Assembly (NCBI RefSeq): GCF_009296025.1
Contig: NZ_CP045178.1
Span: 4,030,001 to 4,094,000, forward strand
Source: Streptomyces tsukubensis
GTDB lineage: Bacteria > Actinomycetota > Actinomycetes > Streptomycetales > Streptomycetaceae
DNA: 64,000 nucleotides
Direction of reading: 5' to 3'
Shown here in pieces: positions 16,120 to 48,923 of this stretch. How positions within the stretch are numbered: position 1 is the stretch's first letter; each line of letters opens with the position of its first letter. The translations under genes were made by a program, and so were the position numbers. A model generated the notes under the pieces. That model had not been told where the DNA came from and did no database searches. It was given only the letters and a program-made list of their open reading frames with translations.

Positions 16120-16335
16120 TCAGTGCTGGGACGGGCTGGCGGCGGCCAGGGAAGCAGGCCGCATGTCGGTCCAGTGGGTGTCGATGTACGCGACGCAGGC
16201 CTCCCTTCCTGTCGGGCCGTGGACGGTGGCCCACCCGTCGGGGACCTCGACGAAGTCCGGCCAGAGGGAGTGCTGCCCCTCGTCGTTGACCAGGACCTTG
16301 AAGGTGCCGTCCGGGTCGTCGAAGGGATTGGCCAT
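16120..16335 (-). CDS. mbtH: MbtH-like protein
   Basis: A 71-residue MbtH protein, the small chaperone that binds and activates adenylation domains of nonribosomal peptide synthetases. The start [19 protein letters not shown] and the conserved tryptophans ([22 protein letters not shown]) are present. The last 12 residues ([10 protein letters not shown]) run slightly past the family core. It is the only MbtH seen in the window and presumably serves both synthetases. AGGAACCACC precedes the start. A tandem repeat array lies immediately upstream. Confidence 0.95.
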
Positions 16336-20064: not shown

Positions 20065-20072
20065 GGTGAGAA

Positions 20073-25009: not shown

Positions 25010-26332
25010 GTGATTCAGGAGGTGCTTTCCGAACGGCTGCCGCGGCTCGCACGCGAGCACGGGGTGCCCGGTGGGCAGTTCGCGCTGCGCCATGAAGGAG
25101 CCACGTACTCCGTGGTCTTCGGTGAGGAGACGACCGGCGGAGAGCCGGTCCGCGAGGACAGCAAGTTCCCGGCCGGGTCGCTCACGAAGGCGTTCACCGC
25201 CGCGCTGGCCATGGTGCTGGTGGACGAGGGCGACCTCGACCTGGACCGGCCCCTGGCCGAGGAACTGCCGGAACTACAGGTGGCCGGCGCGGTGTTCGGC
25301 ACCGAGCAGACGCTGCGCCAGCTCCTCTCCCACAGCAGCGGTCTGCCGCCCGGCCGCGACTCCGAGGACCTGGTGGACGCCACCCGGCGCGGCTATCTCG
25401 CCGACTGCGCCCGGATGCGCCCCATCCCGGTGTGCGGCTCGGCGTTCTCCTATTCCAACGTGGGGTACTGCGTCACCGGGTTCCTCATCGAACACGCCGC
25501 CAGGATGGGCTGGTGGGAGGCGCTGCGTTCGATCGTCCTCGACCCGTTGGACATCGAGGCCGCCTCCATCACGGGTGAGGGCGGGCTCCCGCACGTCACC
25601 GGCCACGCCGTGCGCACGTCGGGCGCGGCGATCCCGGTGCGCCAGACCCTGCCGAGGATCGAGGCCTCCGCCGGGGCCCTGGCGCTGAGCGCGACCGACC
25701 TGGTCGCCTTCGGTCTGCTGCACACCGACGGCTCGCCAGGGGTTCCCGGCCTGCTCGACGCGGGGGCGCTGGCACCGATGCGGGAGCCGGTGCCCGGCGC
25801 CGAACCCTTCGGCCTGGCCGACGGCTGGGGGCTGGGCCTCTCCCGGTACCGGGCCAAGGACGGAACCTGGCGGGTCGGCCACGACGGCACCGCCGACGGC
25901 ACCTCCTGCCACTTGCGGATCGACCCCGCCACCGGCACCACGGCCGCGCTCACCACCAACGCCAACACCGGGATGCCGCTCTGGGAGTCGCTGGTGGCGG
26001 AGCTGGCGGCGAGCGGACTCGACCTTGCGGGCTACTCGTACTCGGGCGCCGACCGCGCGCACCGGCCCCGTATCCCCGCACCGCCCGACTGCGCGGGCCA
26101 CTACGAGAACGGCGACATCTCCTACACCATCGACCTGGGTGCCGAGGGGGACGCGGTGCTGCGCGTGGGCAAGGAGCCCTTCGCCCGGCTCACTGTCCAC
26201 GACGACCTCAGCTTCACCATGCGCGAACTGGCCAGCGGCCAACTGGCCTACCTGGGGCGGTTCCTGCGCGCGCCCGACACGGGCCTGACGGAGCAGATCC
26301 AGGTGACGGGCCGGCGCGCGCAGCGCGTCTGA
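25010..26332 (+). CDS. PBP-type thioesterase (stand-alone peptide cyclase)
   Basis: 440 residues with a serine beta-lactamase/penicillin-binding-protein fold. The three active-site motifs are visible: Ser57-x-x-Lys60 (SLTK), Tyr148-x-Asn150 (YSN) and His291-Asp-Gly (HDG, replacing KTG). A C-terminal beta-rich, lipocalin-like domain follows (about 355-440). There is no signal peptide, so it acts in the cytoplasm. That combination, next to a synthetase without a thioesterase, fits the SurE/MppK/DsaJ/Ulm16 family, which releases and cyclises peptides head-to-tail. Such enzymes favour a D-residue at the C-terminus and an L-residue at the N-terminus, exactly what the module order predicts. GTG at 25010 follows GGAGGGGG. 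A class C esterase or beta-lactamase role is less likely in this setting. Confidence 0.9.
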   Translation: MIQEVLSERLPRLAREHGVPGGQFALRHEGATYSVVFGEETTGGEPVREDSKFPAGSLTKAFTAALAMVLVDEGDLDLDRPLAEELPELQVAGAVFGTEQTLRQLLSHSSGLPPGRDSEDLVDATRRGYLADCARMRPIPVCGSAFSYSNVGYCVTGFLIEHAARMGWWEALRSIVLDPLDIEAASITGEGGLPHVTGHAVRTSGAAIPVRQTLPRIEASAGALALSATDLVAFGLLHTDGSPGVPGLLDAGALAPMREPVPGAEPFGLADGWGLGLSRYRAKDGTWRVGHDGTADGTSCHLRIDPATGTTAALTTNANTGMPLWESLVAELAASGLDLAGYSYSGADRAHRPRIPAPPDCAGHYENGDISYTIDLGAEGDAVLRVGKEPFARLTVHDDLSFTMRELASGQLAYLGRFLRAPDTGLTEQIQVTGRRAQRV

Positions 26333-26479
26333 CCACCCACGGCCGCCGGCCCGCACGAGCGTTCAGGCCCCTTCGGGCCGGCGTGGACCGGGAGGCGGAC
26401 ACCGCGCCGGCCGGGACGCCTTCCACGGCTCCCGGTGCGCTGAACCCGCGGACCGAATTCGGAAGAGGGACTGAGAGAC

Positions 26480-29400
26480 ATGGAACGCGTAATGGCATCC
26501 CGGCGACCGCTGTACCCGTCGGACGGCACCGGCTACCCGTCGGACGCGTGCCTGCACGAGCTGTTTCAGATCCAGGCCGCTCGTCTGCCGGAGGCGACCG
26601 CGCTCGTCTTCCAGGACCGCCGGGTCTCCTACGGTGAGCTGAACGGCCGGGCGAACCGGCTGGCCAGGCACCTCGTGGGGCTCGGGGCCGGTCCCGGCAC
26701 GCTGGTCGGGGTCTGTCTGGAACGCGGGCCGGAACTCGTCATCGCGCTGATGGCGGCCCTCAAGACCGGAGCCGGATACGCGGTCATGGACCCCGCCTTC
26801 CCCGACCGGCGGCTGACGGAGATGGCCAGGCAGGCCGGGACCCGGATGGTGGTGGCCGGGCCGGGGACGGTCGACCGGCCCTTCGCACCCGGGGCCACCG
26901 TGGTGCGGCTCGACACCGCTGAGGCGGCGGGCGGGATCCTGGAGCGGTACGGCAGCGACGACCTGCCGGCCGGCTCGGTACCGGACGACGTGGCGTACGT
27001 GACGTTCACCTCCGGCTCCACCGGACGCCCCAAGGGAGTGCTCTCCCCGCACCGCGCCCCCGTACGGCTCCTCTTCGGCCAGGAATTCCTGGACTTCGAC
27101 CGGCCGAGGGTCTGGCTACAGACCGCGCCGATGTCGTGGGACGCCTTCGCGGTGGAACTGTGGGGGTCACTGCTGCACGGTGGCACCTGCGTCCTGTACG
27201 ACGGCTCCACCCCCGACCCCGAGGTGATCACGGAGCTGGTGGCGGCACACGGCATCACCACCGTGTTCTGGCCGACGAGCCTCTTCAACGCGGTGGCCGA
27301 CGAGTGCCCGCGGCTGCTCGGGGAGCTGGCCGAGGTCATGACGGGCGGCGAGGCGGTCTCGCCGCGCCACATGGCAAAGGCCCGGCTCGCCCACCCTGAC
27401 CTGGACCTCCTGCACGTCTACGGGCCCACCGAGAACGGCATCTACACCACGTGGCACCGTGTGACGCCGGACGACCTCAAGGGTGGCACGGTGCCGATCG
27501 GCCGGGCCGTCGCGCACACCGTCGTGCATGTGCTTGACGACAGGATGCAGCCGGTGCCCGAGGGCGGCACCGGGGAGCTGTGGATCGGCGGCGACGGGCT
27601 GGCCATGGGCTACCTCGGCCGCCCGGGGCTGACCGCCGAGCGGTTCACCGCCTCGCCGTTCGCCCCGGGCGAGCGTCTCTACCGCACCGGCGACCAGGTG
27701 CGCGTCCGGGCCGGGCGGTCCCTGGAGTTCGTCGGGCGCAACGACGATCAGGTCAAGATCCGTGGTTTCCGGATCGAGCCCGAGGAGGTGCGGGCCGCCC
27801 TCGTGGCCCACCCCGCGCTCGCCGAGGCGGCCGTCGTCGCGGTGCGGCACGGCCAAGGGCCCCACAGGCTCGCGGCGTACGTCGTCCCCGGCCCCGGCGA
27901 ACGGGCGCCCGGCGCGGCCGAACTGCGCGCCTTCCTCTCCCGCCGGCTGCCCGCCCACATGGTCCCCAGCGTCTTCACGGCCCTGGACCGGATGCCGCGC
28001 AACTCGGTGGCGAAGGTCGACAAGGGGGCACTGCCCGCGCCCGACTGGACCGCGGCGGCCGAGGATTTCGTCCTGCTGCGCGGACCCGTGCAGGAGACGC
28101 TGGCCCGCATCTGGGCCGAGGTGCTCGAACTGCCCTCGGTGGGCGCCAGGGACGACTTCTTCGACCTGGGCGGAGACTCCATCGCGGCGTTGCGTGTCGC
28201 CTCTCGCGCCGCCGCCGCGCTGGGGATCCGGGTGACACCGCGTGCGCTGTTCCACGCGCCCACCGTCGCCGGGCTGGAACAGCTGCTGGCGGAGGCCGGT
28301 CAGGACGGCACGGCGGCGGACGGCGCCGGTCAGGATCAGGACGCCGCGGGCCCCGACGGGCCCATCCCGCCCGCGCCGCGACGGAACGCGCTGCCGCTCT
28401 CCCACGCCCAACGCCGCCTGTGGTTCCTCCAGGAGAGCGACAGCGCCGCGGCCGAGTACAACACCCCCATCGGCCTGATGCTGCACGGCCCGCTGCGCAC
28501 CGAGGCGTTGAGCCTGTCCCTGGCCGCGCTGTCCGCCCGGCACGAGCCGCTGCGCACGACCTTCGACTCACTGGACGGCATCGGTGTCCAGACCGTGCAC
28601 GAGGTCCTTGAGCCCGGCTGGGAGCTGGTGGACCTGACCGGACTGCCGGACGCCGAACGGGACGCGGCGGCCGAACGCGCGGTCAGGCAGGACGCGGAAC
28701 GCCCCTTCGACCTACGGACCGGCCCTCCCGCGCGGGCCCTGCTGCTCGCGCTCGCCCCCGAGCGCCACCTCCTGGTACTCAACCTCCACCACCTCGTCAC
28801 CGACGGCTGGTCGACCCGGCTGCTGATCGAGGAACTGGGAGTGCTCTACGCCCATCTGTGCGGGCAGCCGGGGCCCTTGACGCCCGACGCCGCCCTGGCC
28901 GGAAGCGCCCTGCCCGAGCTGACGACCCGGTACGCGGACTACGCGGTCTGGCAGCGCAATCGGCTGGACGGCCCCGCCCTGGCCGCCCCCCTGGAGCGGT
29001 GGCGGGCGAAGCTGGCGGGGACGCCGGTACTGGAACTGCCCACCGACAGGCCCCGGCCGCCGGTGCGTGACAGCGCCGGGGCGGTGCACCGCTTCGACCT
29101 GTCGCCGGAACTCACCACCGCCCTGCGCGGGCTGGGCAGGGAGCACGGCGCCACCCTCTTCATGGTGCTGGCCGCCGGGGTACGGGCCCTGCTCGCCCGG
29201 TACACGGGCGAGGAGGACGTGGCGGTGGGCACGGTCTCGTCCGGCCGGTCCCACCCGGAGACGGAGCGCCTGGTGGGCTTCTTCGTCAACACCCTGGTGC
29301 TGCGCGGCCGCGTACGGCTCGACGAGGACTTCGCCACGCTGCTGCGTGCGCTGCGCACCACGGTCCTTGAGGCGTTCGACGACGAGGACGTGCCGTTCGA

Positions 29401-32400
29401 CCGGGTGGTCGAGGCGGTCGCCCCCGAACGCGATCCCAGCCGCCAGCCGCTGGTGCAGACCGTGGTGGCGCTCCAGGAGCGGCTGCCCACGGTGAACGAC
29501 GCGGCGGGGCTGCGGATCGAGCCCCACGACCTTCCGCGCAGACACTCGCGGTTCGACGTGTTCGTGGAGTTCACACCTCGGGGCCAGGGGCTGGCCTGCT
29601 CCCTCGAATACAGCACGGCACTCTTCGACGAGGCATCCGTCGTACGGCTCGGCGACTACCTGCGGACGCTGCTGCGCGGTGCGGTGGCCCGCCCCAGGGT
29701 GGCCCTGGCCGCGCTGCCCCTCACCGAGGAGGAGCGGCGGCCCGCGCTCACCGCCGGGGCCTCCTTCGACAAGCCCTCGCCCGGCGTCTGCCTGCACGAG
29801 GCGTTCGAACTGCGGGCGGCCGACTGCCCCGAGTCGGTGGCGCTCGTCTTCGGTGCGCACAGGACCAGCTACCGGGAGCTCGACGAGGCGGCCAACCGGC
29901 TCGCCCACCATCTGACGGCCAGGGGCGCGGGCCGTGGCCAGGTGGTCGCCGTATGCCTGGAGCGGGGGCCGGAGCTGATCACGGCGCTGCTGGCGATCCT
30001 GAAGACCGGCGCCGCCTACGCCCTGCTCGACCCGGCCTTCCCTGAACGGCGGCTGACCCGGACGCTGGACCAGACCGCCGCGCGGATCGTGGTGACCGAC
30101 GACGCGCTGGCCGGCCGGCTGGCGGGGGCGGCGCGGGTGCGTACGGTCTCGCTGGATCAGGACCGGGCGGCGGTCGCCGCGTGCTCCGCGCTGCCCCCCA
30201 GGTCGGACGTGACACCGCTGGACGCCGCGTGCGTGATGTTCACGTCGGGTTCCACCGGCCGCCCCAAGGGCGTGCTGTCACCGCACCGGGCCGCCGTACG
30301 GGTGGTGCTGGATCAGGAGTTCGCCGAGTTCGGGCCCGACCAGGTGTGGCTCCAGTCCGCTCCCATGTCGTGGGACGCCTTCTCGCTGGAGCTCTGGGGC
30401 GCCCTGCTGCACGGCGGGACCTGCGTGCTGCACCCCGGCTCGACCCCCGACCCCGCCGTGATCGCGGAGCTGGTCCCCGCGCACGGCGTCACCGCGCTCT
30501 GGCTCTCCGCCAGCCTCTTCAACGTCCTGGTGGACGAGGAGACGGAGGTGTTCCGCTCGGTCCGCCAGGTCATCACCGGCGGGGAGGCCGCTTCCAGCGC
30601 CCACGTCGCGAGGGTCCAGCGGGCCTTCCCCGGCCTGTCGCTGGTCAACGGCTACGGGCCGGTGGAGAGCATGGTGTTCGCCACCGCCCGCCGGATCCGC
30701 GCCGAGGACACCAGGAGGAACTCCGTACCGATCGGGGAGGTGCTCGCCCACACCAGGGTCCACCTGCTCGACGACCGTATGGAGCCGGTACCGCCCGGTC
30801 TGACGGGTGAACTGTGGATCGGCGGCGACGGCCTCGCCCTGGGGTACCTGGACCAGCCCGCCATGACGGCGGAACGCTTCATCGCTTCCCCCTTCCACCC
30901 GGGGGAGCGGATATACCGGACCGGGGACCTGGCACGCGAACTCCCCGAGGGCAGCCTTGAGTTCATCGGCCGGGCCGACGAGCAGGTCAAGATCCGTGGC
31001 TTCCGGGTCGAGCCGGGAGAGGTGCGGGCGGCCCTCCTGAGACATCCCGCGCTGGCGGAGGCGGCGGTCGTCGCCGTCCGGCACGGCGAAGGCCCCAAGC
31101 GGCTGGCCGCCTACGTGGTCCCCGCGCCGGACAACGCGGCGCCCACCGCCACCGAGCTGCGCGACTTCCTCAACACCGTGCTGCCTTCCCACATGGTGCC
31201 CGCCGCCTTCACCGCGGTGGACCGGCTCCCGCTCACCCCGTCAGGGAAGCTGGACCGGTCCGCGCTGCCCGACCCCGGCTTCGGGGCCGCGGCCGGCGGC
31301 GCCCACATACCGCCCCGCGACCCGACCGAGCGGACCCTGGCCCGCATCTGGTCCGAGGTGCTGGGGGTGGAACGGGTCGGTGCCGAGGACAACTTCTTCG
31401 AACTGGGCGGGGACTCCATCCTCAGCATGCAGGTCGTCTCCCGTGCGCGGGCCGCCGGGATACCACTCCGTTCCAAGGACGTCTTCCTGCGGCAGACGAT
31501 CGCCTCGCTGGCCGCCGTACAGGCGCGGACGGAGCAGGCGTCGGCCGACGCACCGGAACCGGCCCACGGGGATGTGCCCACCACCCCCGTCCAGCACTGG
31601 TTCCACACCACCCACCCGGTGCGGCCCGACCACTTCGACCAGTACGTCGTCCTCCACCTCGACGCGGACACCGACCGCACCGCGCTGGCCACCTCGGTCG
31701 CCGCGCTGCCCGAGTGGCACGACGCGCTGCGCACCCGGGCCGTCCGTGCGGAGACCGGGTGGCGCCAGCACGTCGAACCGGCCGGGGCGGAGAACGTGCT
31801 GCCGCTGCGCACCGTCGACCTGAGTGCGCGGACCCCGGAGGAACAGGACTCCGCCGTCGCGGCGTGGCCCCACTCCCCGGACGCCAGGTTCCGGCTGGAG
31901 GACCCGGCCAAGTTCGGCGCGGTGCTCTTCGAGCGGGGACAGGGCCGCGGGCCCGCGCTGCTGCTGATCGCGCACCACCTGGTGGTGGACGGCGTCTCCT
32001 GGCGCATCCTGACCGAGGACCTGGAGACCGGCTACCGGCAGGCCGCGGCGGGCCGCGCCGTCGACCTGGGAGCGCGCACCACCTCCTTCCGCGCCTGGGC
32101 ACTGAAGCTCGCCCAGCACACCGCGCGGGGCGGCTTCGCTGACGAGGCCGGCCACTGGGAGGGGGCCGCAGCCCCGAAGACCGCCACCCTGCCGTGCGAC
32201 GCCGACGGTCCCCGCGACGCCGGTTCCGCACGGACCGTACGGGTGGAGCTGGCGGCAGAGGAGACCGAGGCCCTGCTCAGGCGCGCCCCCGCCGCGTACC
32301 ACACGGGGGTGGAGACCCTGCTGGTCGCCGCGTGCGCCCGCTCCGTCGCCCGCTGGACAGGACACCACCGCACACACCTCACCATGGAGGGTCACGGGCG

Positions 32401-35400
32401 CGAGGACATCTTCCCCGACGTCGACCTCACCAGGACCGTGGGCTGGTTCACCTCGCTCTACCCGGTGGCGCTCTCGGTCGATCCCGACGACGGCTGGGAC
32501 ACCGCGCTCCCCTCCGTCAAGGAGCAGCTGCGCGCCGTCCCCGGCAAGGGCGTGGGCTACGGGGCAGGGCGGTACGCGGCGGACGGCGCGCGGGACGCGG
32601 GCGAGCAGGGCCTGCCCGAGGTCAGCTTCAACTACCTGGGCAGGTTCGACTCCGGTTCCGCCGCAGAAGGACGGCTGGTGCGCGGCAGCTCGGGCGTCCA
32701 GCTGACCGAGGACCCCGGGCAGGCCAGGCCCTTCCTCCTTGAGGTGGTGGCCAGGGTGGAGGGCGGTCGCCTCTCGATGGAGTGGGTGTACTCCCCCGGG
32801 GTGCACCGTGCGGAGACCGCTCGGCGGCTCGCTGAGGAGACGGCCGAGGCTCTGCGGGAGATCGTCCGGCACACCGCGGAGCCCTCCGCGGGGCGCGCGA
32901 CCCCCTCGGACTTCCCGCTGGCCGCGCTGGACCAGCCGGCCCTGGACCGGCTGCCGGTCGACGCCCGCGAGGTGGCGGACCTCTATCCGCTCACCGCGAT
33001 GCAGAGCGGCATGCTCTACCACAGCATGACCGACCCCGGCCGGAGCCTGTATCTGGAACAGATCTCCTTCACCGTGGAGGGCGTCGACGGCCCCGAACGG
33101 CTGGAGCGGGCCTGGCGCCAGGCGGTCGCGGACACCCCGGTGCTGCGCACGGCCGTGCTCACCGAGGGCCCGGCCGAGCCGCTCCAGGCGGTGTACAGGA
33201 CGGCCTCGCTCGACGTCACCCACCTGGACTGGCGCGAGCGGACCCACCCGGAGCAGCGGCGCGCCGACTGGGCCGAGGTGATGCGCGAGGACCACGCCCG
33301 GGGCATGGACCTGGGCAGGCCGCCGCTGACACGGGTGACGCTCGCCCGGCTGCCGGGGGGAGCGGTACAGGTCCTGTGGACCTTCCACCACCTGCTGTTC
33401 GACGGCTGGAGCGCTTTCCAGCTGCTGAGCGACGTCCTGGACGGCTGCGGCGCCCCGGTGTCCGGCGGGGGGACCGGCCCGGCGCCGGGGACCGGCTCCC
33501 GGCGTCGGCCCTTCCGTGACTACGTCGCGTGGCTGGCCGAGCAGGACATGGCGGGAGCCGCCCGGTACTGGCGGGGGGCGCTGAGCGGGTTCACCGCCCC
33601 CACCCCGTTGCCGTGGGACCGCCAGCCCCCGGCCAGGTGGCAGAGCCGCTCGACCGGCCGGCTCGGCCTGACGGTCCCCGCGCGGGTCACCGAGGTGCTG
33701 ACCAGGACGGCGCGGGAGCATCGGATCACCCTCAACACCCTTGTCCAGGGCGCCTGGGCGCTGCTGCTCTCGCGCGGCAGCGGCGAGAGGGACATCTGCT
33801 TCGGCTCCACCCGCTCGATCCGGCCGCCGGAGCTTCCGGGGGCCGAGACGATCCTCGGGCTGCTGATCAACACCTTGCCGGTGCGGGTCGCGGTGCCCCA
33901 GGACGCGTCCCTGTTGCCCTGGCTGAACCGGCTCCAGACGGAGCAGAGCGCCGCGCGCGAACACGAGCACCTGCCCCTCACCGACGTGCGGGCGGGCAGC
34001 GAAGTGGCTTCGGGCTCGGGGCTGTTCGACAGTGTGCTGATCTTCGAGAACTATCCCGTGGAGGACCTGGAGGGCCGGGCCGACGGTCTGCGGCTGCGTG
34101 ACGTGGACGGCGACGTGGAGACCACCAACTATCCGCTCGCCGTGACCGTCTACCCCGGCGAGGAGCTGTCCTTCCGCTTCGCCTACGACCCGGAGCTGTT
34201 CGAGGAGGAGACCGTACGCCGACTGGCCGACCGGCTCGGCGAGATACTGGCCTCCGCGGCCCGCCGCCCCGACGCCAGGCTGCGCGACCTGGACTGGCTG
34301 CCCGCCCAGGAGGAGCGGGAGCTGCTCGCGGCCGGCGAGGGAGAACGGCCCCGGGCGGCGGACGACGGCACGGTGCTCGACCTGCTCCACGCGCAGGCGG
34401 CCCGTACGCCGGGCGCTCCTGCGCTGAGTTCGGGGGCCACCACCCTCACCTACCGTGAGCTGGCGGAGCGCTCCGACCGGCTGGCGCACGACCTGGCGGG
34501 TCGCGGTGTCGGCCCCGAGGACGTCGTCGCGGTGGCGGCCCGTCCCTCGGCCGACCTGGTGGTCGCGCTGATCGGCGTACTCAAGGCGGGTGCGGCCTAC
34601 CTGCCGCTCGCCCCCGATCACCCCTCCGAGCGGACCGCGTTGATCCTCCAGGAGGCGTCCCCCGCGCTGGTCCTGTCCGACTCCGCGGGTCTGCGGGCGC
34701 TGCCTGAGGGGCTGAGCCCACTGCCCGTCGAGAACGCGGGGGCCGACGGCGCGGGAGGTCCGCGCCCCGGTCCGCCGACGGACCGGGACCGCACCGCGCC
34801 GCTGCGCCCCGGACACCCCGCCTACATCCTGTACACGTCCGGCTCCACCGGGCGCCCCAAGGGCGTGGTGGTCGAGCACCGGTCGCTCGCCGACTACGTC
34901 CGCTGGGCCGCCCTGGCCTATCCGGGGTCGGCGGGCGGCGCGGTGCTGCACTCACCGCTCACCTTCGACCTGACGGTGACCTCGCTCTACCCGCCCCTGG
35001 CCGGCGGAGGACATGTGCGGATCGCCGAGCTGGAGGACGCGGCGAAGCTGACCGGAGCCGGGGCGGACACGGTCCTGAAGGCCACGCCCGCCCATCTTCC
35101 GCTGCTCGACTCATTCGGCGGCGACCTGCCGGGTGGCGGCCAACTCGTCCTGGGCGGCGAGCAGTTGCTCGGCGAGTCGGTAGCGCGCTGGCGGCAGGGA
35201 CGGCCCCGGGCCACCATCGTCAACGAGTACGGCCCCACCGAGGCGACCGTGGGCTGTATGGAGTACCGGATACCGCCGGGCGCCGAGATCCCTCCGGGGC
35301 CTGTGCCGATCGGCAGGCCCCGGGCCGGCACGCGGCTGCGCGTACTGGACGCGGGGCTGCGGCAGGTGCCCGTGGGTGTCCCGGGGGAGCTGTACGTGGC

Positions 35401-36205
35401 CGGCACCGGACTGGCGCGCGGCTACGTACGGCGACCGGCGCTGACGGCGGAGCGCTTCGTCGCGGACCCCTACGGCCCGTCAGGCAGCAGGATGTACCGG
35501 ACCGGGGACCTGGTGCGCAGGCGCCCCGACGGCGACCTGGAGTTCGTCGGACGCACCGACCACCAGGTGAAGATCCGCGGACACCGCATCGAACTCGGCG
35601 AGGTGGAGGCCGCGTTGGCCGCCCACCCCTCGGTCTCCGAGGCCGCGGCGCTGGCCCTGCCGGTACCGGAGTCCCGGGACGGCGGACCGGGGGCGGACGG
35701 GACCGGCGGGACGAACGGGGCGGACGAGCCGCGCATGCGGCTGGTCGGCTACCTGGTGCCGTCGCCCGGCCACCGGCCGGACCCGGCGGACGTACGCGCG
35801 GCCCTCGGAGGGCAGCTGCCCGCGTACATGGTCCCCGCCGCGGTGGTCGTGGTGGACGCGCTGCCGCTGACCGTCAACGGCAAGCTGGACCGCGCGGCGC
35901 TGCCGGAACCCCCCGCCCAGGAGGGCGGCGCCCACACCGCTCCGCGCACCCCCACCGAGGAGGCGGTCGCCGAACTGTGGGGGGCGCTGCTCGGCGTGGA
36001 ACGGGTCGGCGCGTACGACGACTTCTTCGAACTGGGCGGCGATTCGCTGCTCAGCCTCCAGGCCGTACTGCGCATGAAGGTCGCCTTCGGCCTGGACCTC
36101 TCGCCCCGCGACGTCCTGAACAAGCCGACCGTGGCCGCCCTGGCAGAGCTGATCGAGGATCTCGTCATCGCCGAACTGGAACAAGCCGCCGCCGAGGAGG
36201 CGTGA
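26480..36205 (+). CDS. Nonribosomal peptide synthetase, modules 1-3 (A-T / C-A-T-E / C-A-T)
   Basis: 3241 residues. Approximate domains: A1 24-515, T1 530-595 (phosphopantetheine Ser ~565 in LGGDS); C2 638-1075 (HHLVTDG ~769), A2 1104-1590, T2 (Ser ~1647), E2 1701-2130 ([10 protein letters not shown] ~1832); C3 2165-2600 (HHLLFDGW ~2303), A3 2632-3135, T3 (Ser ~3189). It begins directly with an adenylation domain, so it starts the chain with a free amino acid. My hand-read ten-residue codes are A1 DAVFMGVIYK (aliphatic; nearest to Ile DGFFLGVVYK), A2 DALWIGGVFK (Val) and A3 DLTKVGEVGK (Asn). C2 has the LCL form ([13 protein letters not shown]) and C3 the DCL form ([13 protein letters not shown]), in step with the epimerase. 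The acidic helix at the very C-terminus may dock with the next protein. The ATG at 26480 follows GGAAGAGGGA. Confidence 0.95.
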
Positions 36206-36317
36206 AGGCGTCCCCCAGGAGCCCGCGGGCCGCCCGCGCCCGCCTTCGCCCGGCCCGCCGGGCTCCTGGCCGCCGCCATCCGAGAACCTTCCGCACCACA
36301 GCCCACGGAGACTTCAC

Positions 36318-39300: not shown

Positions 39301-42300
39301 TCGGCTACGCCGTCCCGGCGCCGGGAAGCGCGCCCGAGCCACGCGCGCTGCGCGAGCACGCCGCCCGCGCGCTGCCCGACTACATGGTCCCTGCCGCCGT
39401 GGTCCTGCTGAACGCGCTGCCGCTCACCCCCAACGGGAAGCTGGACCGGGCGGCGCTGCCCGCCCCCGACTACCCCTCCACGGCCGGTACGGACGGCACC
39501 CCGCCGCGTACGTCCACCGAGAAGGCGCTCGCCGCGATCTGGTGCGAGCTGCTCGGCGTCGAACGCGTCGGGGTGCGCGACAACTTCTTCGACCTCGGCG
39601 GCGACTCCATCCTGAGCATCCAGACCGCCACCAGGGCCCGCGCCGCCGGGCTGAACCTCGCGTCGCGGGACGTCTTCCTGTGGCAGACGGTCGAACAGCT
39701 CGCCGCGGCCTGCGACGCCGCAGCCGAGCCGGGCGGCCCCGCCCCCGACGTGCGGGACGACAGTGCGGGACCGGCTCCGCTGACCCCCATCCAGCACTGG
39801 TTCCTCGACACCTACCGGGTGGCTCCCGACCAGCTGACGATGTCCGTGCACCTCCGGCTCGACCCCGACACGGACGTGTCCGCGCTGCGGGCCGCCGTCC
39901 ACGCGCTGGTGGAACGTCACCCGGCCCTGCGTTCCCGTTTCACCACCCGCGACGGGGAGCACGTCCAGGAGCCCGCGCCGGGAGCGGCCGGAGAATTCTT
40001 CACCCACCTCGACCTGGCCTGGCTGCCCGACTCCGAGCGGCAGGCCGCCAGGGAGAGCGCCGCCGCCCGAATCCGGGAAGGCTTCCGGCTGGACACGGGA
40101 CCGCTCTTCGGCGCCGTCCTGTTCGACGAGGGGCCCGGCACCGGACGCCAACTCCTGCTGACCGCACACCACATGGTGGTGGACGGGGTCAGTCTGCGGC
40201 TGCTGCTCGCCGAACTGGACCGCGCCTACCGGCAGATCACCGCGGGCGGCGCAGCCGATCTCGGGCCCGCCTCCGCGTCCTTCGGGCAGTGGGCGACCGC
40301 TCTGCGCGACCACGTCCGCTCGGGGGCGCTCGACTCGGAGGTCCCCTACTGGTCGCGGGTCTTCGACGGCGGGGGCGACACCGTCCCCGTGGACCGCGAC
40401 GGCCCCAACACCGCGGGCTCGGTGCGCACCGCGCACGCCACGCTCGACGCGGAACGCACCGACGCGCTGCTGCACCGGGTGCCCCCGGTCTACCGCACCC
40501 GCGTCAACGACCTGCTGCTGAGCGCCGTCAGCGCCGTCCTCGGCCGCTGGAGCGGGAAGGAACGCGTCGTCCTCGCCGTGGAGGGGCACGGCCGCGAGGC
40601 AGCCGTGCCCGGTTGCGACCCGGCGGGAACCGTCGGCTGGTTCACCGCCATGCACCCGGTCGCGCTGCGCCCGGACCTGCGGCACGGCTGGCGTTCGGCG
40701 ATCACCTCGGTCAAGGAGCAGCTGCGCGCCGTACCGGGCAACGGCTTCGGCTACGGCGCGCTGCGCTGGCTGAGCGGCGGGGACGCGCCGGGCCTGGCCC
40801 TCGCCCACGACCGGCTCCCGCAGGTCTCGTTCAACTATCACGGCCGGTTCGAGACCGGCGCCGACTCGGCCGGACTGCTGCGGGGCCGGGTCGACGGACT
40901 CGACGACCGCCCCGGTGACGAGGAGATCCGCCCCCACCTGCTGGACGTCGTGGGCGTGGTGGAGGGCGGACGGCTCGCCTTCACCTGGTTCTACTCCGGC
41001 AATGTCCACGAGGACGACACCGTGGAGCGCCTCGCCGACGAGGTCGTCCGGGCGCTCGGCGAGATCGTCGACCACTGCGTCGCGCCGGACGCCGGTGGGC
41101 GCACCCCCTTCGACTTCCCGCTGGCCGCCCTCACGCAGGCGGAGGTGGACCTGGTGGCGGGTGACGGGAGGACGGTGGAGGACATCCTCCGGCTGACCCC
41201 GATGCAGCAGGGCATGCTCTTCCACCGCCTGATGGAACCGGCCTCGGACGCGTACTTCAACCAGCTCGCGCTGCCGGTCGAGGGGGTCGACGACCCGAGG
41301 GCCTTCGCCTCGGCGTGGCAGCGGGTGGTGGACGCGACCCCCGCGCTGCGCACCTCGATCGTCTGGGAAGGGCTGAGCGACCCCGTACAGGTGGTCCACC
41401 GGGAGGCCGAGCTGCCGATCGCGCTGCTCGACTGGCGGACGTACTCCCCGAAGGAGCGCGAGCGTCGGCTGAAGCGGCTCCTGGCGGAGGACCGGGCGCG
41501 CGGCCTGGACCTGGCATCGGCCCCACTGTCCCGGATCACCCTGGCGCGGACGGCCGAGGACGCCGTACTGCTCGTATGGACCTCAAGCCACCTGCTGCTG
41601 GACGGGTGGAGCACGTCGGCGGTCTTCGCCGCCGTGGGCCGGGTGTACGCCGCCGCGCGGGCCGGCCGCGAGACGCCCGAGGTGGCCACCCGGCCGTTCC
41701 GGGACTATGTGGCCTGGCTGGCCGAGCAGGACGGCGGGGCGGCGGACACGTATTGGCGCGAACGGCTGGCGGGGTACGACACACCGACCCCGCTGCCGTA
41801 CGACCGCAGGCCGTCCCAGGCACACCGCGCGCAGTCGTCCGAGCCCGTCTCCTTCACCCTGGACACCCGCGAGTCCCGGCTGCTCGGCGACATGGCACGG
41901 CGCTACCGGGTGACCATGAGCACCGTGGTGCGGGGCGCGTGGGCGCTGCTGCTGTCCCACCACAGCGGCACCGGGGACGTGGTGTTCGGCGCGACGGTCT
42001 CCGGCCGCCCCGACGAACTGCCCGAGGTCGAATCGATGGTCGGCCTGTTCATCAACACCGTCCCCGTGCGGGCCAGGATCGAACCGGGACGGCCGCTCGG
42101 CGAGTGGCTCAGGGGACTCCAGGCCGAGCAGCTCGAAGCAAGACCCTACGAACACGCCGCCCTCTCCCGGATCCAGTCGCTGAGCGGGGTCCCGTCCGGC
42201 ACACCGCTCTTCGAGAGCATCGTCGTCTTCGAGAACTACCCGCTCCAGGACGGCGGAAGCGCCGAGCACGGGCTGCGGATCGGGGAGGGCGAGGCCCTGG

Positions 42301-45300
42301 ACACCAACACCTATCCGCTGACCCTGACCGCCCACCACGACGACCGGCTGCACTGCGAGGTCGGCTACGACCCGCAGCTGTTCGACGCGTCCACGGCGCG
42401 GGCGCTCACCCGCCGCCTGGAGGTGATCCTGACCGGCGCGGCCACCGCCCAGGAACGCCCGCTGTCCCGCGTGCCCTGGCTCCCCGAGGAGGAGCTGGCC
42501 GAGGCCCTCGACCGGGCGAGCGGCCCGGTCCACCGGGCCCCCGCCGCCCGCCCGGTCCACCTGCTCTTCGCCGACCAGGCCCGGCGCACCCCGGACGCTC
42601 CCGCCGTACGCTGCGGTGACACCGTCCTGACCCACAGGGAGTTGGACGAGCGCGCCGGGTTCGTCGCCGGGCGACTGGCCGCCCTAGGGGCCGGGCCCGG
42701 CAGCCTGGTGGGGCTCATGGTGGGCCGGGACGTGGAGATGGCGGTCGGGGTGCTCGGCATCCTCAAGGCCGGAGCGGCCTACGTGCCGCTCGACCCCTCC
42801 CACCCCGCTGAGCGGTTGGCCGGGATCGTGGCCGACACCCGCCCGACGGTGGTGGTGACCCGCACGGGCCACCTCGGCGTGTGGGCCGAGGTGTCCGGCG
42901 GTCCCGAGGCCGACGGCGCCGCGATCCTGGACCTGGACCACGAGGACCGGCGGCAGCCGCGTCCGGTGGCCGAGCCGGTCGCGGCGGACCCACGGGACCT
43001 GGCGTACGTCATCCACACCTCAGGATCGACCGGGCGGCCCAAGGGCGTCATGATCGAACACCGGCAGCTCGCCGCCATCCTGGACTCCTGGGAGCATCGC
43101 TACGGGCTCTCCGCCAAGCGCCTTGACTTCATCTCGGTCACCAGCCTTTCCGTGGACCTGTTCTTCGCCGACCTGCTGCGTTCGCTGCCCTTCGGAGGGT
43201 CGCTGACCATCTGCCCCGACGAGGTGGTCACCGACCCGCCGCGCCTGCTCGACCTCATCGAGGACGTCGGGGGCACCGGCTTGGAACTGGTCCCCGGGCT
43301 GGCCGACGCGCTGGTCGCGGAAGCGGCGGTGCGCGGTCGCGGACTGCCGCCCCTGAAGCTCCTCTCGGTGGGCTCCGAGGGCTGGCGCACCCAGGACTGC
43401 CTGCGGCTGCTTGACCACACCGGCCCCGGCACCGAGGTGGTCAACGCCTACGGCTCGACCGAGGTGACCATCGACGCCACCGTGCTGACCCCGACACCCG
43501 GCGCGCTGGAGGGCGCGGCCTTCGTGCCCGTCGGCGCCCCGCTGGCAGGCGTCCGCGTCCACGTACTGGGCGACGCGCTCACCCCGGTCCCCACCGGAGT
43601 GGAGGGCGAGCTGTACATCGGCGGGAACGGCGTCGGCCGGGGGTACTGGGGGCAGCCGTCCCTGACCGCCGCCCGGTTCGTCGCCGACCCGTTCACCCCC
43701 GGCGCCCGGCTGTACCGCACCGGTGACCGGGCCCGGGTGCGCCGCGACGGCTCCCTGGAGTTCCTCGGGCGGGCGGACGACCAGATCAAGGTGCGCGGAT
43801 TCCGTGTCGAACTCGGCGAGGTGGAGGGCGCGTTGGCGGCCCTGCCCGCGGTCGCACAGGCCGCGGTGAGCATCCACCGCGAAGCCGGCCGGACGCTGCT
43901 GACCGGCCATGTCGTACCGGCCGACGGCTCGGAGCGGGTCACGGGCGGCGAACTGCGCGCCGCCCTGCTCGCCCGCGTGCCCGACTATCTCGTCCCGGCC
44001 AGGTTCGCGGTGACCCGCGCCCTGCCGCTGACCCCCAGCGGCAAGGTGGACCGCAGGGCCCTCGCGGAGGCCGCGGCCCAGGGTGAGCCCGACGGCACCC
44101 ATGTCGCGCCCCGCACGGCGACCGAGGAACTCATCGCCTCCATCTGGGCGGAGACGCTGGGCACCGGACGCGTCGGTGTCCACGACGACTTCTTCGCGTC
44201 GGGCGGGGACTCGATCCTCAGCATCCGGATAACCTCCCGGCTCCGCGCCGCGCTCGACCGTCTCCTGTCGCCCCGGGCCCTCTTCGACCACCCCACGGTG
44301 GCCTCCCTCGCCGCCGCTCTCGACGGGACCGAGGGACAGCCGTCCGCGGATCCGATCCCGACGGTGGCGGGCCACGAGCGGCTGCCCCTCTCCTTCGCGC
44401 AACAGCGGCTGTGGTTCCTGGACGCCTTCGAACCGGGCGGCACCGACTACATCTCACCCACCGGCCTGCGCATGCGCGGACCGCTCGACCCCGGGGCGCT
44501 GCGCGGCGCGCTGGACGACCTGGTGGCGCGACACGCCTCGCTGCGCACGGTGTTCGAGGAGGTGGACGGCCAGGGCACGCAGACCGTCAAGGAGGTCTGC
44601 GAGGTACCGATGCCGCTCACCGACCTGAGCACGCTGCCCGCTCCCGAACGGGAAGCGGCCTTGCACGAGCTGCTCAGCGAACAGACCGGGACCCCCTTCG
44701 ACCTGGGCGAAGGGCCCCTGGTGCGGGCCGCACTGGTACGTCTCGCCGAGGAGGACCACATCCTGGCGCTGTGCGTCCACCACATCGTGACCGACGGCTG
44801 GTCCAGTGCCGTGATCTCCCGTGACCTGCGGGCCATGTACGCGGCCAGGCTCCACGGCGGGAAGGCGGAGCTGCCGCCCCCGTCACTGCGCTACGCCGAC
44901 TTCGCCCAGTGGCAGCGGGACAGGCTCACCGCGGAAGCGGCGGAGGAACAGATCGGCTACTGGCGGGAGCGGCTGGCCGGGCTGGAGCCGCTCGAACTGC
45001 CCACCGACCGGCCGCGCCCGCCGGTGCGGACCACGAACGGCGCCACCCTCGGCTTCCGGGTCCCCGAGGAGGCCACCGACCGGATCAACGAACTGGCCGC
45101 GAGCCGTGGCATCACCCTGTTCACGGTGCTGCTCGCCGCCTGCCAGCTGCTGTTCGCCCGGCACAGCGGCCGGCGGGACATCGCCGTCGGCACGGTGGCG
45201 TCCGGCCGGGAACGGGCCGAACTGGAGGAACTGGTCGGCTTCTTCATCAACACGCTGGTCGTCAGGACCTCCGTCGACGAGCACCTGAGCTTCCACGACC

Positions 45301-48300
45301 TGCTCGCCCGGGTGAAGGAGACGGTGGCCGAGGGGCTCGCCCACCAGGACGTGCCCTTCGAGCGGCTGGTGGACGCCATCGCCCCGGAACGCGACCCGAG
45401 CAGGTCGCCCCTCTTCCAGGCGATGGTGGTGCTCCAGAACATCCCCACCGAGCGCGCCGAACTCGACGGCCTGCGGGTCGAGGAGTTCGCGCTGCCCTCC
45501 ACCTCCACCGCCTTCGACCTGACCATCCAGTTCGAGCAGGTGGACGGGGCGCTCGTCGGCGGTATCCAGTACAACACCGACCTGTTCGACACGGCGACGA
45601 TCCAGCGCATGACCCGGCACCTGCGGACCCTGCTGGAATCCCTGACCGCGGCGCCGCACCGGCCGCTGCACACCGCCACCCTGCTGCCGGACGACGAACG
45701 GGCCGCGCTGGTACGGGAGGGCACGGGCGCGCCGTGCCCGCCACCCGAACACCTGCTGGCGCACGCCCGGTTCACCGACCTGGCCCGCAGGGACCCCGAC
45801 GCGCCCGCCGTCGTCGACGGCACCACCACGCTCAGCTACGCGGAGCTGGACATCAGGTCCAACCGGCTGGCGCACCACCTGCGCTCCCTCGGCGCGGGCC
45901 AGGACACCCTGGTCGGGGTGTGCCTCCCGCGCGGCGCCGACGCCGTGGTCGCGGCCCTGGCGGCGGTCAAGGCGGGCAGCGCCTACGTACCGCTGGACCC
46001 CGACTATCCGGCGGAGCGGCTGACCGCCATGGCCGAGGAGACCCGTATCCCCGTCCTGGTGACGTGGGAGCGGCTGCGGGAGCGGCTGACGTCCGCCCCC
46101 GTACAGGCCGTGCTGCTCGACCGCGACCAGGAGCTGATCGCACGGCATCCCGCCGCCGCGCCGCCCGTCACCGGCGGACCCGACAGCCTCGCCTACGTCG
46201 TCTACACCTCCGGATCGACCGGGCGGCCGAAGGGCGTCATGATCCCGCACCGGTCGCTGTGCCACGCCGTGGCCCGCTTCAACGAGCGGTTCGGGATCGG
46301 GCCCGGCGACCGGCTCCTGCAACACCTCTCCCTCAGCTTCGACGGCGGTGTCTCCGACATCTTCTGCACGCTGATGTCCGGAGCCACTCTCTGCTTCAGC
46401 CAGTCCGAGAACGGCGGCGACCTGGCGGCCGAGGCCAGGCGCCTGGACGCCACCGTGCTGATGACACCGCCCGCGCTGCTGTCCGCGCTTGACCCCTCCG
46501 AGGTGCCTTCCGTCCGGGCGGTCGGGGCGGCCGGCGACGCCTGCCCGCCCGCTCTGGCCCGGACCTGGTCCGAAGGCCGCCGTTTCCACAACATCTACGG
46601 TCCCAGTGAGACCACGCTGGTCGCCACCACGCACTCCGGCGGCTACGAGGGGAGCAGCCCGAGCGTGCCGCTGGGCAGCGCGCTCGGCAATGTGCGGCTG
46701 TACGTGCTCGACGAGTGGCTGCGCCCGGTCCCGTACGGCGGCCGCGGGGAGCTGTACATCGCGGGCCCCGGGCTCGGGCGCGGCTACCTGCGCAAGCCCG
46801 CGCTGACCGCGGAGCGGTTCGTCGCCTCGCCGTTCTGCGCCCCGGGCGAGCGGATGTACCGCACCGGCGACATCGTCCGCCTGCGGGCCGACGGGCAGCT
46901 CGACTTCGCGGGCCGGCAGGACAACCAGGTCAAGATCCGGGGCTTCCGGATCGAGACGGGCGAGGTGGAGGCGGTCCTGCGTGGCCACCCGGACGTCGCG
47001 GAAGCGGTCGTCACGGCCGTCACCGAACCCTCGGGACACAAGCGCCTGGCCGCCTACGCGACCCCGGCGGCCGGGCCCGGCGGTGAACACCCCGACGCCG
47101 CCGCCCTGCGCGCCTTCCTCAGCGACGCGCTTCCCGCCCACATGGTCCCGACCGTGTACGCCGTCCTGGACGAGCTGCCGCTCGGCCCGAACGGCAAGGT
47201 CGACCGCGCCGCGCTGCCCGCCGCCGCCCCGGTGGCGGGGGCCGGTACCGGTCACGTGGAGCCGACGACACCGCTCCAGCGCCTGCTGGCCGACATCTGG
47301 GCGGACGTCCTGAACCTGGAGCGGGTCGGCGTCACCGAGCGCTTCTTCGACATCGGGGGTGACTCCATCCTCAGCATCCAGGCGCTCGCCAGGGCCAGGG
47401 AGGCCGGAGTGCGGATGACCGCCAAGGATCTGTTCCTGCACCAGTCCATCACCGAGCTGTCCCAGGTCGTCACGTGGGACGCGCAGTCCACGGCGCCACT
47501 CGCCGCGGAAGCCCCGGTCACCGGGGACGTCCCGCTCACCCCGTCCCAACGGTGGTTCTTCGCCACCCGCGAGCACACCACCCACTTCAACCAGTCGACG
47601 CTGCTGGAACTCGACGGGCGGGTCGACCGCGACGCGCTCGGCCGGACACTGCTGGCACTGGTGGAGCACCACGACGCGCTGCGCACCCGGTTCGTCCAGG
47701 ACGGTGGGGGGAACTGGCGGCAGACCGTCACGGCCCCCGGCCAGGACTCGGCGGACACCTTGCTGACCGACTGTGACCTGTCGGAGGTGGCCCCGGACGA
47801 GCGGCCGAAGAGGATCGAGCGGCGCGCGGTGGAGACCCAGCGCGGCTTCGACCTCGCCCGAGGCCCACTGCTGCGGGCGGTGCTCTTCACCGGGACGGAC
47901 GGAGCGGACCAGCTCTTCCTCACCGTCCACCACCTGGTGGTGGACGCGGTCTCCTGGCGCATCCTGCTGGACGACCTGGAACGGGGCTACCACCGGGCCC
48001 GTGCCGGCGAGGTGGTCGTACCGGCCGGCCGGACCACCTCCTTCCAGCGGTGGTCCCGGCTGCTCGGCGAGCATGTCGCGGCCGGTGGCTCGGACCACGA
48101 GGTGGCCCACTGGACCGAGGTGCTGCGGGCGGTGGAGCCACTGCCGACCGACGGGCCTGGCCCCAACTCCGCCGAGACCGCCGCCACCGTCGAGACCGGC
48201 CTCGGCCGCGAGGAGACCAGGCAACTGCTGCGCACGGCACCCGGCGTCTTCAGGACCCGGGCCGCCGACGTACTGCTGGGCACGCTGGCCATGGCCCTGG

Positions 48301-48923
48301 GGCGGTGGACCGGCCGGCAGCGGGTCGTCCTTGAGGTGGAGAGCCACGGCCGGGAGGAGATCTTCGACGGTGTCGACCTGTCCCGCACGGTCGGATGGTT
48401 CACCTCGGTCCACCCGGTCGCGTTGACCGTCCCCGACGACACCGCCCCCGCCGACCCCTTCGGCGGCGGCCTGCCGCGACCGGACTGGAGCCGGCTGATG
48501 AAGTCGGTCCGCCGGGACCTGCGCGGGGTCAGGGACAACGGGCTGGGCTACGGCCTGCTGCGTCACCTCGCCCCCGAGGGCACGCCCGGCGCCGCACTGC
48601 GCGAGCTGCTCCAGGCAGAGGTGGTCTTCAACTACCTCGGCCAGTACGAGAGCGAGCAGTCCGCGTCCGGCGCGGGCCGGCTGATCCGCGCGGAACGAGG
48701 AGCACTCGGCGAGGACCAGAGCGCCGAGGAACAGTCGACCCACCTCCTGGAGGTGGTGGGCAGCACGGTGGACGGCCGGCTCGGATTCACCTGGTACTAC
48801 TCCACCGCGGTCTTCCATCCGGCGACCGTGACCAAGGTCGCGCACCTCTTCGACGAACTGCTGCGCGACCTGGCCCAGCACTGCGCCGAGCTGCCCGGCA
48901 CCACCCGGCGGGAGAACCGATGA
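36318..48923 (+). CDS. Nonribosomal peptide synthetase, modules 4-6 (C-A-T-E / C-A-T / C-A-T-E), no thioesterase
   Basis: 4201 residues. A short helix ([20 protein letters not shown]) precedes C4 and is a likely docking element. Domains: C4 47-490, A4 512-1040, T4 (Ser ~1097), E4 1155-1590; C5 1620-2060 (SSHLLLDGW, first His replaced, catalytic His kept), A5 2080-2575, T5 (Ser ~2632, in SGGDS); C6 2689-3120, A6 3150-3630, T6 (Ser ~3683), E6 3740-4190 ([10 protein letters not shown]). Codes read by hand: A4 DFWNVGMVHK (Thr, exact), A5 DLAESGAIDK (acidic at 278 and 331, so a basic residue such as Arg or a derivative), A6 DGSMGAILVK (unfamiliar; perhaps aromatic). C5 is DCL type and C4 and C6 LCL type, consistent with the epimerase pattern. 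The protein ends with an epimerase domain, so release must be in trans. GTG at 36318 follows CGGAG. The stop overlaps the exporter start. Confidence 0.95.

What the first reader, a model, noticed from the sequence alone, without database searches (positions are those of the whole stretch)
25010..48923. Six-module NRPS with trans PBP-type cyclase predicts a strictly alternating L-D-L-D-L-D cyclic hexapeptide
The two synthetases read A-T, C-A-T-E, C-A-T, C-A-T-E, C-A-T, C-A-T-E. Epimerases are in modules 2, 4 and 6. The condensation subtypes agree independently: C3 and C5 have the DCL form, C2, C4 and C6 the LCL form. There is no thioesterase, and a stand-alone PBP-type cyclase lies just upstream. 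Such enzymes join an L N-terminus to a D C-terminus, exactly the ends predicted. Full D,L alternation is rare in natural rings; synthetic alternating D,L-cyclic peptides stack into tubes, so the product could have unusual membrane or assembly behaviour.
Basis: partly seen in the sequence, partly recalled or inferred. Interest (0 to 1): 0.85.

Follow-up and report, generated by a model that had tools for sequence, protein, structure and literature searches.

The report
Alternating D,L cyclic hexapeptide gene cluster
A Streptomyces-type gene cluster very probably makes a six-residue ring peptide whose building blocks alternate in handedness; the layout matches that of a ring peptide already isolated, so what is new is mainly the predicted set of building blocks.

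Summary
Two synthetases (26480-36205, 36318-48923) read A-T, C-A-T-E, C-A-T | C-A-T-E, C-A-T, C-A-T-E, without a thioesterase, beside a SurE/Ulm16-type stand-alone cyclase. In a tree of 112 C-family domains labelled by position only, C3 and C5 fall in the D-accepting clade, C2/C4/C6 in the L-accepting clade, and the three E domains in the E clade. An L-D-L-D-L-D ring is the best prediction. It is not new chemistry: cyclofaulknamycin (Streptomyces albus, 2021) has the identical string, a PBP-type cyclase and residues assigned L,D,L,D,L,D. Of 50 other PBP-cyclase loci surveyed, 4 have this string behind an extra N-terminal C domain, 1 has it in broken frames and 3 are mannopeptimycin-like (no E in module 2). 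The cluster extends beyond the finding: MppJ-type methyltransferase, aminotransferase, MbtH and VioC-type hydroxylase genes (15136-18702) belong to it, by synteny in S. monomycini. A-domain codes and a tree suggest cyclo(L-Ile/Val - D-Val - L-Asn - D-Thr - L-capreomycidine or OH-Arg - D-beta-methyl-Phe-like), a third branch beside faulknamycin and mannopeptimycin. The nanotube idea has no support here.

The parts
25010..26332 (+). stand-alone PBP-type (SurE family) cyclase, 440 aa
   Evidence: SurE 6ksu 262.6 bits, Ulm16 8fek 224.9 bits; SLTK, YSN, HDG motifs
26480..36205 (+). NRPS1, modules 1-3: A-T, C-A-T-E, C-A-T
36318..48923 (+). NRPS2, modules 4-6: C-A-T-E, C-A-T, C-A-T-E; no room for a thioesterase
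26552..28042 (+). A1, code DAVFMGVIYK, Ile/Val-like (recalled codes)
28385..29749 (+). C2, L-accepting (LCL) clade
29792..31276 (+). A2, code DALWIGGVFK, Val-like (published FlkP A3 Val code DAFWLGGTFK)
31568..32914 (+). E2, epimerization domain, motifs intact
32975..34327 (+). C3, D-accepting (DCL) clade
34373..35911 (+). A3, code DLTKVGEVGK, Asn (recalled code)
36456..37787 (+). C4, LCL clade
37851..39467 (+). A4, code DFWNVGMVHK, Thr-like (published Flk Thr code DFWSVGMVHK)
39771..41087 (+). E4, epimerization domain, motifs intact
41178..42497 (+). C5, DCL clade; SHLLLDG in place of HHxxxDG, second His kept
42555..44072 (+). A5, code DLAESGAIDK; sister to flk-type A4 (published code DLAESGAVDK, capreomycidine module)
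44379..45713 (+). C6, LCL clade
45759..47225 (+). A6, code DGSMGAILVK; sister to mannopeptimycin-type A3 (DGWTGAILSK, taken as the beta-methyl-Phe module)
47523..48890 (+). E6, terminal epimerization domain; HHLVVDA, His pair and Glu of E(S)HGRE kept
17698..18702 (-). MppJ-type alpha-keto acid C-methyltransferase
   Evidence: MppJ 4kib 301.6 bits; syntenic in S. monomycini
16645..17658 (-). HisC-like aminotransferase, nearest solved chain a putative Phe aminotransferase
16120..16335 (-). MbtH protein, 71 aa
15136..16101 (-). VioC/GntD-type Fe(II)/2-oxoglutarate Arg beta-hydroxylase
14094..15071 (+). ArsR-like regulator, relatives of it in the two named orthologous clusters
21394..21834 (+). 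ABC ATPase region of the ORF ending at 22050 (partner of the FtsX permease)
22054..24720 (+). FtsX-type ABC permease, 888 aa; export or self-protection is inferred
50567..51238 (-). LuxR-family response regulator
51208..52512 (-). sensor histidine kinase

Best explanation
This is a six-module nonribosomal peptide cluster for a head-to-tail cyclic hexapeptide of strict L-D-L-D-L-D configuration. NRPS1 starts with an A-T module (shown: no C domain before A1), so residue 1 is taken to be a free L residue, and adds residues 2 and 3; NRPS2 adds residues 4 to 6. E2, E4 and E6 turn residues 2, 4 and 6 into D (inferred from intact domains). The linear peptide on the last carrier protein, with L first and D last, is taken by the stand-alone PBP-type cyclase and closed to a ring (inferred from the family). 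Tailoring genes at 15136-18702 supply building blocks: an MppJ-type methyltransferase and an aminotransferase make a beta-methylated aromatic amino acid, most likely used by A6; a VioC-type hydroxylase makes 3-hydroxyarginine, used as such or as capreomycidine by A5 (all inferred from homology). Predicted product: cyclo(L-Ile/Val - D-Val - L-Asn - D-Thr - L-capreomycidine or OH-Arg - D-beta-methyl-Phe-like). Confidence 0.8 is for ring size plus alternation; for residue 6 being beta-methylated about 0.65, residue 5 Arg-derived about 0.85, the full sequence about 0.3.
For: Domain string. C subtypes by tree: 12 of 12 non-window post-E C domains in the D clade, 8 of 8 after also dropping the two orthologous clusters. 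E motifs. Cyclase kinship to SurE and Ulm16 and the family's L-to-D rule (PMC11735501 passages). Identical string in S. monomycini and S. cacaoi. Same string, a PBP-type cyclase and a VioC homolog in the cyclofaulknamycin cluster, whose residues were assigned L, D, L, D, L, D (PMC8399532). A6 sister to mannopeptimycin-type A3 with 100/99 support, A5 sister to flk-type A4 with 99/97, in a tree of 62 A domains from 11 clusters. MppJ-type methyltransferase gene near the cyclase and syntenic in S. monomycini.
Against: No product is known. Post-T position fails to predict the C clade in 4 of 41 cases, and one of 16 E-labelled domains fell outside the E clade. C5 lacks the first His of HHxxxDG and E6 has DA for DG; both deviations recur in the orthologs, and in the 25 E-clade rows that last letter is G in 15, A in 4, another letter in 4 and not found in 2. 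A1 and A6 have codes for which I recall no exact published match. No capreomycidine cyclase (VioD) passes its cut-off in the genome, so residue 5 may stay 3-hydroxyarginine. The tailoring genes are separated from the cyclase by a transposase-like ORF. The related linear faulknamycin was reported with D-phenylserine at the residue that the flk study found to be L.
Confidence: 0.8

Rival explanations
1. The assembly line works as read, but one of the atypical domains (C5 with SHxxxDG or E6 with HHxxxDA) is impaired, so that the product is not fully alternating or is partly released as a linear peptide.
For: Non-canonical motif residues. Cyclofaulknamycin was isolated together with a linear isomer, though that isomer starts at a Thr, not at the residue of module 1.
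Against: Both deviations recur in the two orthologous clusters (C5 Ser in 3 of 3; E6 DA or DT in 3 of 3), and the second His and the Glu of E(G/S)HGRE are kept.
Confidence: 0.12
2. The cluster is a mannopeptimycin variant: glycosylated, with enduracididine in place of capreomycidine.
For: MppJ-type methyltransferase, A6 kin to mannopeptimycin-type A3, A4 kin to mannopeptimycin-type A1.
Against: A5 groups with flk-type A4 before mannopeptimycin-type A5; the VioC-like protein is 48-52% identical to flk-like and 41-42% to mannopeptimycin-like homologs; no glycosyltransferase or MppP/MppR-like domain was seen in the 24 window ORFs run on Pfam; several other ORFs of the window were not run.
Confidence: 0.06
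3. The upstream genes at 15136-18702 are a neighbour, not part of the cluster; the product has only unmodified residues.
For: A transposase-like ORF at 18919-20082 separates them.
Against: The four genes lie directly beside the ABC, kinase, regulator, cyclase and NRPS genes in S. monomycini and are present in the S. cacaoi locus; they include an MbtH gene.
Confidence: 0.05

Closest known systems
Cyclofaulknamycin (flk cluster, FlkP/FlkS/FlkO/FlkT, Streptomyces albus; PMC8399532)
   Same: Identical published domain string, no thioesterase domain, PBP-type cyclase, VioC-type hydroxylase, MbtH, near-identical Arg-type A code (DLAESGAVDK vs DLAESGAIDK), residues assigned as alternating L,D (Marfey analysis on the linear isomer, place of the two Thr from module order).
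   Different: Arg-derived residue at position 4 (D) there, 5 (L) here; other A codes; the flk-like loci fetched here show no match to the MppJ-type methyltransferase at E 1e-12; their cyclases are 40-44% identical to the window's. FlkO itself was not compared.
   Same: Six modules, PBP-type cyclase (MppK), MppJ-type methyltransferase, related A domain for the beta-methyl-Phe slot, VioC-family hydroxylase, D,L pattern apart from Gly at 2 (module reading plus recalled structure).
   Different: No E in module 2 and no A in module 6 there; the beta-methyl-Phe slot is module 3 there and module 6 here; no mannose gene among the 24 window ORFs run on Pfam.
Desotamide/surugamide/ulleungmycin family (SurE, WolJ, Ulm16)
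   Same: Same stand-alone cyclase family, L start and D end (passages).
   Different: The surugamide-like string, 34 of 50 surveyed loci (the label surugamide is recalled), has E domains in successive modules and so is not alternating; for desotamide and ulleungmycin this is recalled.
Orthologous clusters in S. monomycini NRRL B-24309 and S. cacaoi NBRC 12748
   Same: Same string, same tailoring genes, cyclase 68% and 76% identical.
   Different: S. monomycini A4 has the Asn code; order around the ABC and two-component genes differs; the S. cacaoi NRPS1 frame changes within A1.

Membership tests
PBP-type thioesterase (SurE family) | SxxK, YxN and HDG active-site motifs | tested here: met
   SLTK, YSN, HDG aligned to SurE 6ksu
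PBP-type thioesterase (SurE family) | full-length match including the C-terminal lipocalin-like domain | tested here: met
   residues 11-439 of 440 aligned to SurE; by sequence only, no fold was predicted
PBP-type thioesterase (SurE family) | acts beside a TE-less NRPS ending in an E domain | tested here: met
PBP-type thioesterase (SurE family) | closes L N-terminus onto D C-terminus | not testable with these tools
   needs enzyme assay; known for the family (passages)
cyclofaulknamycin-type hexapeptide line | string A-T-C-A-T-E-C-A-T / C-A-T-E-C-A-T-C-A-T-E | tested here: met
   published string
cyclofaulknamycin-type hexapeptide line | VioC-type Arg hydroxylase and Arg-type A domain | tested here: met
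cyclofaulknamycin-type hexapeptide line | same residue order (Phe-Leu-Val-Arg*-Thr-Thr codes) | tested here: not met
   codes differ; the Arg-type code is in module 5
mannopeptimycin-type line | no E in module 2, no A in module 6 | tested here: not met
   both present here; absent in 3 of 3 mannopeptimycin-like loci
mannopeptimycin-type line | MppJ-type methyltransferase | tested here: met
   301.6 bits to MppJ 4kib
mannopeptimycin-type line | enduracididine genes MppP/MppR and mannosyltransferases | tested here: inconclusive
   none among the 24 window ORFs run on Pfam; other ORFs and the rest of the genome were not searched for them
strictly alternating D,L cyclic hexapeptide | E domains in modules 2, 4, 6 and matching C subtypes | tested here: met
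strictly alternating D,L cyclic hexapeptide | isolated product with D at 2, 4, 6 | not testable with these tools
   needs culture, MS and Marfey analysis

The most novel reading that the evidence does not exclude
A third branch of the faulknamycin/mannopeptimycin group: an alternating cyclic hexapeptide that closes its ring through a D-configured beta-methyl aromatic residue at position 6 and carries an L-capreomycidine or 3-hydroxyarginine at position 5, a combination that no title or abstract start in the listings showed.
Probability: 0.5. Interest if true: 0.45.

Novelty: new member of a known kind. Interest (0 to 1): 0.35.

Why it matters
It gives a concrete, testable product: predicted [M+H]+ 743.420 (Ile, capreomycidine), 761.430 (Ile, hydroxyarginine), or 14.016 less with Val at residue 1. 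It shows that one alternating scaffold has been filled with different residues in at least three lineages, with A domains related across different module positions, which is useful for NRPS engineering and for testing what alternation does to a natural ring. It would also add a PBP-type cyclase that probably closes on a bulky D-beta-methyl residue.

Tried and rejected
Rejected: that alternation itself is new (cyclofaulknamycin). Rejected: that the finding is a chance reading; the eight C-family domains score 197-377 bits against a cut-off of 30.6 and the string recurs in two orthologous clusters. Considered and left as minor rivals: impaired C5 or E6, a mannopeptimycin variant, unrelated upstream genes.

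Led nowhere: a search for a capreomycidine cyclase in the own genome gave 19 aminotransferase hits, none over the cut-off, and the control genomes gave hits in 14 of 14, none over the cut-off. The plasmid collection held no cyclase match of 60% identity or more. Two further genome searches with P0004 added no ortholog: 2 of 395 and 2 of 392 genomes matched, these being the own genome or S. cacaoi and the S. lydicus-type locus; their lists look largely like the same genomes as, so they are not independent draws. The genomic context of the 77% homolog that a source names S. albidoflavus (P0003) and of P0002 and P0004 was not seen, so I cannot say whether one of them lies in a described cluster. 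The literature search for natural alternating rings (listing) gave mostly synthetic nanotube papers and lugdunin. One search (mannopeptimycin, cyclic hexapeptide, alternating) found 0 papers; that mannopeptimycin alternates apart from Gly is read from its modules here with a recalled structure, and the order Gly-betaMePhe-Tyr is recalled.

Limits: the C tree used the quick method with a midpoint root; rows under 350 residues were dropped; only part of the NRPS loci of the three genomes was fetched. Of 64 cyclase places, 1 is the window and 50 were fetched; 13 were not (4 near contig starts, 9 for lack of calls). A-domain codes were cut out by motif anchors recalled from memory; the rule gives, in the flk-like locus G145, exactly the published flk A1, A2 and A4 codes, while A3 differs by one letter and the Thr code by more, with one position missing. 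Literature: PMC8399532 sections 3.1, 3.4, 3.7 and tables plus passages; passages of PMC11735501, PMC7459860, PMC13285481, PMC5238550, PMC11496134, PMC5357945, PMC11389392; all else listings only.
Full report
What was checked. The window lies at 4030001-4094000 of contig C2 of an 8.63 Mb, two-contig genome. Pfam PF00668 places eight condensation-family domains in the finding's interval. With A and T domains the two synthetases read A-T-C-A-T-E-C-A-T (26480-36205, 3241 aa) and C-A-T-E-C-A-T-C-A-T-E (36318-48923, 4201 aa). The E6 match reaches to about ten residues before the stop, so no thioesterase can follow. The gene at 25010-26332 is a PF00144 protein whose best solved relatives are SurE (6ksu, 262.6 bits, residues 11-439 of 440) and Ulm16 (8fek, 224.9 bits), with the SxxK, YSN and HDG motifs aligned. 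Its residue aligned to SurE Gly235, the pocket residue named in PMC11735501 (passages), is also Gly by my count on the alignment.

C-domain subtypes. I collected condensation-family domains from the window, six further NRPS loci of the same genome, six loci of S. monomycini (G392) and ten of S. cacaoi (G393), their clusters orthologous to the window included, kept those of at least 350 residues (112 rows), and labelled them by position only: E if followed directly by another C-family domain, post-E, post-T, first, or last. The tree (IQ-TREE quick, SH-aLRT) has an E clade (25 rows, 100), a clade of 26 rows (96) and one of 55 rows (92), plus six N-terminal rows. All 14 post-E domains lie in the 26-row clade (12 of 12 without the window; 8 of 8 without the window and its two orthologous clusters); of 41 post-T domains, 37 lie in the 55-row clade and 4 in the 26-row clade; 15 of 16 E-labelled rows lie in the E clade and one lies in the 55-row clade. 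Window C3 and C5 fall in the 26-row (D-accepting) clade, C2, C4 and C6 in the 55-row (L-accepting) clade, E2, E4 and E6 in the E clade.

Catalytic motifs. E2, E4 and E6 keep the HH motif, E(G/S)HGRE, TVGWFT, GxGYG and FNYxG. Two oddities: E6 reads HHLVVDA (DA in S. monomycini, DT in S. cacaoi), where the last letter is G in 15 of 25 E-clade rows, A in 4, T, S, E or V in one each, and not found in 2; and C5 reads SHLLLDG, with Ser before the second His in 3 of 3 orthologs. The second His and the Glu, recalled as the catalytic residues, are kept.

The cluster is larger than the finding. On the minus strand at 15136-18702 lie a VioC/GntD-type hydroxylase (VioC 206.5 bits; NCBIfam GntD 331.7 and VioC 281.5 bits, both under their cut-offs), an MbtH protein, a HisC-like aminotransferase (nearest solved chain a putative phenylalanine aminotransferase, 258.2 bits) and a methyltransferase whose best solved relative is MppJ (301.6 bits); the two His and one Asp recalled as MppJ's iron ligands are conserved in that alignment. 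A transposase-like ORF separates them from the cyclase. In S. monomycini the same four genes lie directly beside the ABC pair, histidine kinase, response regulator, cyclase and NRPS genes (the four: 61-78% identity); in S. cacaoi the four are present in the locus too (74-83%). They therefore very probably belong to the cluster, as do the two-component genes at 50567-52512, whose relatives lie downstream of NRPS2 in S. cacaoi.

Which residues. A-domain codes: A1 DAVFMGVIYK, A2 DALWIGGVFK, A3 DLTKVGEVGK, A4 DFWNVGMVHK, A5 DLAESGAIDK, A6 DGSMGAILVK. In the flk-like locus G145 the extraction rule gives exactly the published flk codes for A1, A2 and A4; A3 differs by one letter and the Thr code by more. 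A5 differs by one residue from the published code of the capreomycidine module of FlkS and groups with flk-type A4 domains (bootstrap/SH-aLRT 99/97, 62 A domains from 11 clusters). A6 groups with A3 of mannopeptimycin-type clusters (100/99; code DGWTGAILSK), which by collinearity is the beta-methyl-Phe module (order of Gly, beta-methyl-Phe and Tyr recalled; MppJ makes beta-methyl-Phe from phenylpyruvate with a transaminase, passages of PMC11496134). A3 (Asn) and A1 (Ile-like) rest on recalled codes; A2 and A4 resemble published Val and Thr codes. Predicted masses are; the same sum gives 731.397 for cyclofaulknamycin, against 731.39 published.

Is it new? Cyclofaulknamycin from S. albus has FlkP A-PCP-C-A-PCP-E-C-A-PCP and FlkS C-A-PCP-E-C-A-PCP-C-A-PCP-E, the stand-alone cyclase FlkO, and the VioC homolog FlkT (PMC8399532, passages); FlkO is listed among five PBP-type enzymes studied in vitro (PMC11735501, passages). 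The residues were determined as L-threo-beta-phenylserine, D-Leu, L-Val, D-capreomycidine, L-Thr and D-allo-Thr, by Marfey analysis of the linear isomer, with the authors noting agreement with the domain order; which Thr is which follows the modules, and the related faulknamycin of another group was reported with D-phenylserine (section 3.4). That is the very string and the very alternation claimed here. Of 392 Streptomyces genomes, own included, 63 hold a cyclase relative at E 1e-60. I read 27 to 75 kb around 50 of the 63 non-window places: 34 are surugamide-like (33 by the script plus G180, where one T domain was missed; the name is recalled), 4 have the flk-like alternating string, each with an extra N-terminal C domain, 1 more has it in broken frames (G145), 3 are mannopeptimycin-like (no E in module 2 but a D-type C3; no A in module 6), 8 are other or truncated. 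So strict alternation is a minority pattern with precedent. The window's own type is rarer: only the own genome among the 392 has a cyclase above 48% identity, and 9 of 94 listed cyclase homologs, the window included, are 64% identical or more, the next being at 51% or less.

Function and behaviour. Mannopeptimycins act on Gram-positive bacteria (passages); cyclofaulknamycin showed no activity at 0.03-64 ug/mL against the tested panel, and both it and its linear isomer dissolved poorly. Lugdunin, a natural cycloheptapeptide, is reported to form stacked channels reminiscent of alternating D,L designs (passages of PMC11389392), so stacking is not absurd, but nothing in the window speaks for it.

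Verdict. Observation confirmed; interpretation partly supported; new member of a known kind, with a predicted residue set that the listings did not show.

Noticed in passing
window 18919-20082 (-); S. cacaoi L002:3919-4920: ISAzo13-like transposase ORF between the tailoring genes and the cyclase; a 54% identical relative lies on the corresponding side in S. cacaoi, none matched in the 21 kb S. monomycini stretch L001.
   Followed up: partly
S. monomycini L034 (NRPS2 A4): A4 has the Asn code DLTKVGEVGK and groups with A3 of the same cluster (92/75, below the star), unlike A4 (Thr-like) of the window and S. cacaoi: perhaps an exchange of A domains between modules.
   Followed up: partly
window A1 (26552-28042) and A2 (29792-31276): A1 and A2 of all three clusters form one clade apart from the other 56 A domains of the tree (100/100), so the A domains of modules 1 and 2 look like products of duplication.
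   Followed up: no
G137, G175, G311b (mannopeptimycin-type loci): Module 3 carries a D-type C domain although module 2 has no E domain, which suggests a lost E2 beside the Gly module.
   Followed up: no
S. cacaoi L002 near 12690: The NRPS1 reading frame changes within A1, either a sequencing fault or a real break.
   Followed up: no
G000 C2, about 7.04, 7.46, 7.56 and 7.69-7.72 Mb: The genome holds several further large NRPS loci (53 PF00668 matches in all).
   Followed up: no
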